Shown here in pieces: positions 61,360 through 61,673 of a stretch of DNA of 64,000 nt. Source of the DNA: Quinella sp. 2Q5 (GTDB lineage Bacteria > Bacillota > Negativicutes > Selenomonadales > Selenomonadaceae). The stretch spans positions 48,573-112,572 of the forward strand of contig JADEZQ010000004.1 of assembly GCA_015206785.1 (NCBI GenBank), given 5' to 3'. The notes below the pieces were generated by a model. The model worked only from the letters and a program-made list of their open reading frames with translations. It was not told the origin of the DNA and searched no databases. Made by a program: the position numbers and the translations under genes. Every line of letters starts with the position of its first letter. Positions within the stretch are counted from its first letter, which is position 1.

Positions 61360-61388
61360 TTGAAAGCTTTATGAACGCGTGATATACT
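61360..61388 (+). promoter_or_regulatory. promoter for small toxin-like ORF
   Basis: TTGAAA-17 bp-TATACT. Confidence 0.75.
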
Positions 61389-61447
61389 GCTCGCGAGGCA
61401 GTTCGATGTGTCGGCTTTCTTCCCTCGAAGGAAGGGGGTGACGCGGA

Positions 61448-61534
61448 ATGGATTTCTTCGACTGGCTGGACGTGGTCTGCAAGGTCGGGACGTTCGTCTT
61501 CGCTATCCTCAGTTACTTCAACGGAAAAAAATAA
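61448..61534 (+). CDS. 28-aa hydrophobic holin-like / type I toxin-like peptide
   Basis: MDFFDWLDVVCKVGTFVFAILSYFNGKK; GGAAGGGGGTG RBS; absent from ORF track because of size. Confidence 0.7.
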   Translation: MDFFDWLDVVCKVGTFVFAILSYFNGKK

Positions 61535-61640
61535 GCCGTATGCGACACGGCTCGTAAAACCTTAGCATCTGTATCAACGAGGTGAAGGAGTCGACGCGCT
61601 ACCATCGGGCTGCCTCACCGTTTTTGTTTGTTCAACTGCG
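61534..61640 (-). ncRNA. candidate antisense antitoxin RNA
   Basis: Reverse-strand TTGAAA-17 bp-TACCAT promoter (at 61644..61672), terminator AGCCGT-gtcgcat-ACGGCT then TTATTTTTTT at 61552-61526. Confidence 0.6.
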
Positions 61641-61673
61641 CGAATGGTATCACATTCGGCGAAAAGTTTCAAG

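What the first reader, a model, noticed from the sequence alone, without database searches (positions are those of the whole stretch)
61360..61672. Unannotated type I toxin-antitoxin-like locus between two c-di-GMP signalling genes
Seen directly: a 28-aa ORF (MDFFDWLDVVCKVGTFVFAILSYFNGKK, 61448-61534) with a strong RBS; a plus promoter TTGAAA-17-TATACT (61360-61388); a convergent minus promoter TTGAAA-17-TACCAT (61644-61672); and a hairpin AGCCGT/ACGGCT just after the stop codon, followed on the minus strand by TTATTTTTTT, i.e. a terminator for an antisense RNA of about 100 nt. A plus-strand hairpin ending CCTCACCGTTTTTG (about 61580-61626) could end the toxin mRNA, so the two RNAs would overlap at their 3' parts. 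The 5' UTR has CTTCC/GGAAG pairing that could mask the SD. This layout matches TxpA/RatA, BsrG/SR4 and holin-like (Hol_Tox) type I systems of Firmicutes. Toxin function is inferred.
Basis: partly seen in the sequence, partly recalled or inferred. Interest (0 to 1): 0.82.

Follow-up and report, generated by a model that had tools for sequence, protein, structure and literature searches.

The report
Rumen bacterium antisense-RNA-controlled toxin cassette
A 300-base cassette makes a 28-residue membrane peptide that is probably toxic to its own cell and, from the other strand, a short RNA that silences it; it is a new, divergent branch of a known bacterial toxin-antitoxin family, copied many times in uncultured rumen bacteria.

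Summary
Members have up to ten copies per genome, often in tandem. The reading frame is under purifying selection. The antisense promoter (44/50) and antisense terminator (38/50) are conserved far above shuffled controls. This pairing covaries (17 of 32 pairs change on both sides), lies where the antisense RNA binds, and is also predicted for Negativicutes Hol_Tox loci and for Bacillus SPbeta bsrG. The window peptide scores below every Pfam and NCBIfam cut-off, but profile-profile comparison and intermediate sequences link it to Hol_Tox (PF16935). So the type I toxin-antitoxin interpretation is supported: a new divergent subfamily of the Hol_Tox, txpA/RatA and bsrG/SR4 kind. The c-di-GMP neighbours are probably incidental: one relative has the slot empty and another carries a different cassette there. 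Transcription, toxicity and antisense action remain untested.

The parts
61360..61388 (+). toxin mRNA promoter TTGAAA-17-TATACT with extended -10 TG; predicted start about 61395
   Evidence: conserved, score >=10/14 in 49/51 copies
61395..61426 (+). 5' arm of the long-distance 5'-3' helix of the toxin mRNA; also holds the anti-SD CUUUCUUCC
   Evidence: fold z -3.5; covariation 17/32 pairs with both sides changed, 0/500 shuffles
61407..61445 (+). local hairpin sequestering the Shine-Dalgarno sequence (CUUUCUUCC with GGAAGGGGG)
   Evidence: nascent 5'UTR fold, SD core unpaired about 0.02 here and 0.09 family mean; conserved
61448..61534 (+). 28-aa predicted membrane peptide (putative toxin) MDFFDWLDVVCKVGTFVFAILSYFNGKK
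   Evidence: purifying selection; hydropathy; homology to Hol_Tox
61525..61553 (-). intrinsic terminator of the antisense RNA; its U-run is read from the toxin's Lys-Lys-stop codons
   Evidence: 38/50 copies against 3% of shuffles
61578..61616 (+). 3' arm of the long-distance helix; contains GAAGGAGUCGACG (61584-61596), a mimic of the SD arm
61617..61629 (+). T-rich tract, probable 3' end of the toxin mRNA (weak terminator)
   Evidence: 51% T against 27% background; no simple terminator found
61526..61637 (-). predicted antisense RNA (antitoxin), about 110 nt, complementary to the toxin mRNA 3' part; also carries an anti-SD stretch
61644..61672 (-). antisense promoter TTGAAA-17-TACCAT with extended -10 TG
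   Evidence: conserved as TTGACA-17-TGATAAATT, 44/50 copies

Best explanation
This is a chromosomal type I toxin-antitoxin cassette, a divergent Hol_Tox / bsrG-SR4-like subfamily. The plus-strand mRNA (about 61395-61625) encodes a 28-aa single-helix membrane peptide whose overproduction should damage the cell's own membrane. Translation is held off in two ways: a 5'UTR hairpin hides the SD, and the mRNA's two ends close into a 30-bp helix. A convergent antisense RNA of about 110 nt (61637 to about 61526) pairs with the mRNA's 3' third. It should promote mRNA decay (RNase III) and, in many copies, displace the 5'-3' helix so that the SD hairpin locks shut; its CUCCUUC stretch can also cover the SD directly. 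Shown by sequence and comparison: the ORF under selection, both promoters, the antisense terminator, the covarying helix, multicopy spread and homology to Hol_Tox. Inferred: transcription, toxicity, RNase III, and the SD switch. For this particular copy the fold predicts an occluded SD in every state, so decay is the likelier antisense action here.
For: Observed parts confirmed. 3 copies in this genome; 34/189 family genomes, up to 10 copies, tandem. Purifying selection. Antisense promoter 44/50 and terminator 38/50. 5'-3' helix covariation 17/32 pairs, 91.6% cells paired against 30-51% when slid; own pairs stronger than swapped, z -7.7 in 19 non-redundant loci. Hol_Tox is the most frequent Pfam match among members (11/28, best E 0.0023, below cut-off); profile-profile 93% with 0/120 shuffled controls as good; intermediates MDKFDWL... 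and MSKYEII.... Negativicutes Hol_Tox loci 32/32 share the 5'-3' pairing, swap z -12.5. SPbeta bsrG folds the same way, and masking the SR4 site lengthens its SD stem from 5 to 9 bp in silico, in line with the published 4 to 8 bp (PMC6562991).
Against: No expression or toxicity data. The window peptide itself has no Pfam or NCBIfam hit. Its antisense -10 (TACCAT) is weaker than the family's. One paralogue is frameshifted (L002), so some copies decay. No ordinary plus-strand terminator. The predicted SD switch holds for the family average (0.28 to 0.14, p 5e-10) but not for the window copy (0.06 to 0.05) nor on average for 32 Negativicutes Hol_Tox loci.
Confidence: 0.87

Rival explanations
1. 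An antisense-regulated small membrane protein that is not a toxin: a signalling or membrane-stress peptide with the same layout, perhaps tied to the neighbouring c-di-GMP genes.
For: Not every small hydrophobic peptide under antisense control is toxic, and the two neighbours are c-di-GMP enzymes.
Against: Multicopy, tandem and patchy distribution, homology to Hol_Tox. The c-di-GMP slot is empty in G046 and carries another cassette in G044.
Confidence: 0.08
2. A mobile repeat element (MITE- or REP-like) whose inverted ends explain the 5'-3' complementarity; the ORF is incidental.
For: Inverted copies at the two ends, multicopy and tandem; an empty site in a relative.
Against: In-frame purifying selection, SD and start conserved, divergent peptides with the same hydrophobic pattern, promoters and a terminator at fixed places, the same layout with a different Hol_Tox peptide across Negativicutes.
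Confidence: 0.03
3. A variant of the best explanation: a par/Fst-like mode of action in which the antisense RNA acts mainly by pairing with the SD through repeats, not by 3'-end pairing and decay.
For: The 3' element mimics the SD arm, so the antisense can pair with the SD: mean -22.0 against -14.5 kcal/mol for shuffles, 34/50 below the 5th percentile.
Against: The terminator is not shared (no U-run on the plus strand); the main repeat is inverted; the peptide lacks the Fst tryptophan/charged C-terminal signature described in PMC7472228 and is linked to Hol_Tox instead.
Confidence: 0.12

Closest known systems
Hol_Tox family (PF16935) loci of Negativicutes
   Same: Peptide length and ungapped profile match; 5'UTR (..GTTCGATGT.TCGG.TTTCCTC.. 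hairpin ..GGAGGTGA); antisense terminator after the stop; covarying 5'-3' helix
   Different: Window peptide has an acidic N-terminus (MDFFDWLD, family MD..DW) in place of M(T/S)xYEALSLMI and no match at the Pfam cut-off; found almost only in one genus
bsrG/SR4 of B. subtilis prophage SPbeta
   Same: Convergent antisense at the mRNA 3' end, SD in a short stem, long 5'-3' helix that the antisense would open
   Different: 38-aa toxin on a prophage; a strong mRNA terminator beyond the helix; no peptide similarity beyond the Hol_Tox pattern; Rfam BsrG model only 12 bits, E 2.2
txpA/RatA
   Same: Antisense pairing at the 3' ends, RNase III decay proposed as the main action (PMC6562991)
   Different: Longer toxin (own knowledge); no conformational change reported; sequences not compared here
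aapA/IsoA and hok/Sok
   Same: 5'-3' long-distance interaction in the toxin mRNA (PMC6733600)
   Different: There the interaction hides the SD until 3' trimming; here folding predicts that it competes with the SD-hiding hairpin
Fst/Ldr par systems
   Same: Convergent promoters; antisense able to pair with the translation start
   Different: No shared bidirectional terminator, inverted rather than direct main repeats, no Fst signature (PMC7472228)

Membership tests
type I toxin-antitoxin system | small hydrophobic peptide under selection, with its own promoter and RBS | tested here: met
type I toxin-antitoxin system | antisense RNA gene overlapping the toxin mRNA, with promoter and terminator | tested here: met
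   sequence only: 44/50 and 38/50 copies against 7.5% and 3% of shuffles
type I toxin-antitoxin system | peptide toxic, toxicity cancelled by the RNA | not testable with these tools
   needs expression in a host
Hol_Tox (PF16935) | match at the curated Pfam cut-off | tested here: not met
   window peptide no hit; best of 28 members E 0.0023, below cut-off
Hol_Tox (PF16935) | homology by profile and intermediate sequences | tested here: met
   hhalign 93%, score 25-27 against at most 14.4 in 120 shuffles; intermediates E 1.1e-4 and 2.6e-4
Hol_Tox (PF16935) | same RNA and gene layout as accepted Hol_Tox loci | tested here: met
   32 Negativicutes loci
[quoted passage not shown]
   predicted overlap about 61526-61625, about 100 nt; range from PMC6562991
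bsrG/SR4-like | SD sequestered, stem extended when the antisense binds | tested here: inconclusive
   bsrG reproduced in silico; family average yes, window copy no
bsrG/SR4-like | RNase III-dependent decay | not testable with these tools
   no experiment possible
hok or aapA-like | 5'-3' interaction hides the SD and 3' trimming activates | tested here: not met
   predicted SD opening is lower after 3' truncation (0.16) than full length (0.28), 50 copies; thermodynamic prediction only
Fst/Ldr par | shared bidirectional terminator | tested here: not met
   no plus-strand U-run after the hairpin
Fst/Ldr par | tryptophan between TM helix and charged C-terminus | tested here: not met
   only W is near the N-terminus (W6); alignment A1

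The most novel reading that the evidence does not exclude
The 3' end of these mRNAs carries a copy of the SD arm that competes with the real SD for the same anti-SD strand. Finishing the transcript would then open the SD, and the antisense RNA, by covering the copy, would close it again: a translational switch in which the long-distance helix activates rather than silences, the reverse of hok and aapA, kept across a whole genus-wide toxin family.
Probability: 0.2. Interest if true: 0.55.

Novelty: new member of a known kind. Interest (0 to 1): 0.45.

Why it matters
It adds a multicopy type I toxin-antitoxin subfamily, absent from Pfam and NCBIfam, to uncultured rumen Selenomonadaceae. A literature search for type I toxin-antitoxin systems together with Negativicutes returned one paper, on thioredoxin systems of Clostridia, which names each term once. 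It links the family to Hol_Tox through intermediates and shows that the bsrG-type 5'-3' helix is a covarying feature of such loci in Negativicutes, so bsrG mechanics can be tested in a natural series of variants.

Tried and rejected
Rfam: nothing significant; BsrG at 12 bits on the right strand and place, E 2.2, is not evidence. PADLOC none, NCBIfam and PHROGs only weak hits. Phage records and IMG/VR: no match; plasmids: one spurious hit inside a WD-40 gene. SPbeta under AF020713 is not held; found as NC_001884. A MITE explanation was rejected on coding evidence. A hok-like reading was set aside on SD-accessibility predictions. A c-di-GMP link was rejected on slot polymorphism. Structure prediction was not run: 28 aa is below the tool's 30-aa minimum.

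Full report
Observation. The region was read directly and scanned. The flanking genes are a response-regulator GGDEF protein and, convergent to it, a PAS-GGDEF-EAL protein. The proposed plus-strand terminator is only an imperfect hairpin: a simple scan finds no terminator there in any of 50 copies, but the following 15 nt are 51% T against 27% background, so the mRNA probably ends near 61617-61629, weakly supported.

Conservation. The peptide has two further copies in the same genome. In a search of 100 genomes (its own and relatives) it occurs in 23, all of one genus. With a 28-member profile it occurs in 34 of 189 genomes of the family, nearly all of one genus (one marginal hit, E 0.006, in another genus), with up to ten matches per genome and many tandem pairs about 320-400 bp apart. 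A 22-base UTR pattern hits 25 named contigs, all Selenomonadaceae/Selenomonadales MAGs (most of them labelled as ruminant gut), including Quinella sp. 1Q7. The family is absent from the phage records and, by UTR pattern, from IMG/VR; the only plasmid hit is spurious.

Is it a gene? Across 39 distinct 28-codon copies, variation concentrates at third positions (entropy 1.13 against 0.83 and 0.45 at first and second) and pN/pS is 0.56 in frame against 0.88 and 1.49 in the other frames. The peptide has one hydrophobic stretch and a charged C-terminus.

Is there an antisense gene? Below the 3' element a minus promoter scoring at least 10 of 14 is found in 44 of 50 copies, against 7.5% of shuffled sequences. 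A minus terminator at the toxin's 3' end is found in 38 of 50, against 3%. The predicted antisense RNA is about 110 nt and overlaps the mRNA's 3' part by about 100 nt.

The mRNA's 5' end (61395-61426) is complementary to its 3' region (61578-61616). The window mRNA folds with z -3.5, with this helix as its outer stem. RNAalifold recovers its inner part from 42 sequences unprompted. Counting the named helix, 91.6% of cells pair (30-51% when slid), 17 of 32 pairs have changes on both sides, and no shuffle reaches these values. Relatedness can inflate such counts, but a swap test on 19 non-redundant loci agrees: own pairs -48.7 kcal/mol against -40.9 for swaps, z -7.7. The 3' arm also resembles the SD arm (GAAGGAG..GACG), so the antisense RNA can pair with the SD too: -22.0 against -14.5 kcal/mol for shuffles.

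Relation to known families. The window peptide alone hits nothing in Pfam or NCBIfam. Among 28 members, Hol_Tox is the most frequent Pfam match (11 members, best E 0.0023, below cut-off). Profile-profile comparison with Negativicutes Hol_Tox gives 93%, end to end without gaps. In a repeat run the score was 25.2, against at most 14.4 in 120 column-shuffled controls. Intermediates exist in the same genus: MDKFDWLMLVLSLIQTVLALLTFLK-type peptides (the A4 profile matches in 36 of 66 genomes) and MSKYEIISLAIQFANLVLTLLTYLD (Hol_Tox E 1.1e-4), sitting in tandem in L122 and sharing nearly identical 5'UTRs there. Hol_Tox proper is in 90 of 301 Negativicutes genomes. Thirty-two of those loci have the same UTR layout and 5'-3' complementarity, swap z -12.5. 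The Bacillus SPbeta bsrG mRNA, taken from a phage record, folds with the same 5'-3' helix.

Mechanism. For bsrG, masking the antisense target in silico lengthens the SD stem from 5 to 9 bp, close to the published 4 to 8 bp caused by SR4 (PMC6562991). In the window's family the same masking lowers SD opening from 0.28 to 0.14 on average (p 5e-10), but the window's own SD is predicted closed throughout (0.06 to 0.05), and 32 Negativicutes Hol_Tox loci show no mean change. So a switch is possible for the family and unproven; for this copy, decay triggered by pairing at the 3' end, as for txpA/RatA, is the safer inference. These are thermodynamic predictions only.

Context. The slot between the two c-di-GMP genes is polymorphic. 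In G046 it is empty, with only a shared terminator. In G044, whose neighbours are 83-87% identical, it holds a different Hol_Tox-like cassette in the same orientation (peptide MTKYEIISLVLQGATLVVTLLNWLS, E 2.6e-4). In G032 an Fst-like looking cassette lies downstream of the EAL gene. This argues against a function tied to c-di-GMP.

Verdict. It is filed as a new, divergent member of the Hol_Tox / bsrG-SR4 kind by homology and layout; it does not meet the Pfam cut-off, and toxicity is untested.

Noticed in passing
L147 (G044:C44), between the GGDEF and EAL genes: The orthologous slot holds a different Hol_Tox-like cassette (MTKYEIISLVLQGATLVVTLLNWLS) in the same orientation; in L151 (G046) the slot is empty.
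   Followed up: partly
L156 (G032:C180), downstream of the EAL gene: Cassette encoding MFAIFVTTVAADVVAGVSLYFICKWLDRHFR with direct repeats (GGTAGTCT, CATGTTCGCAAT) on either side of a terminator: looks like an Fst/Ldr par system but has no Pfam or NCBIfam match.
   Followed up: partly
L106, L110-L125, L122: A second peptide subfamily (MDKFDWLMLVLSLIQTVLALLTFLK) with similar UTRs; its profile matches in 36 of 66 genomes of the genus, sometimes in tandem with the 28-aa type.
   Followed up: partly
L002 around 1572-1435, minus strand: Paralogue in the window's own genome with a frameshifted C-terminus (45 aa), probably decaying.
   Followed up: no
L143 (G287:C24:25600-30400): At least six Hol_Tox cassettes lie in one 4.8-kb stretch of a genome of another genus of the same family.
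   Followed up: no
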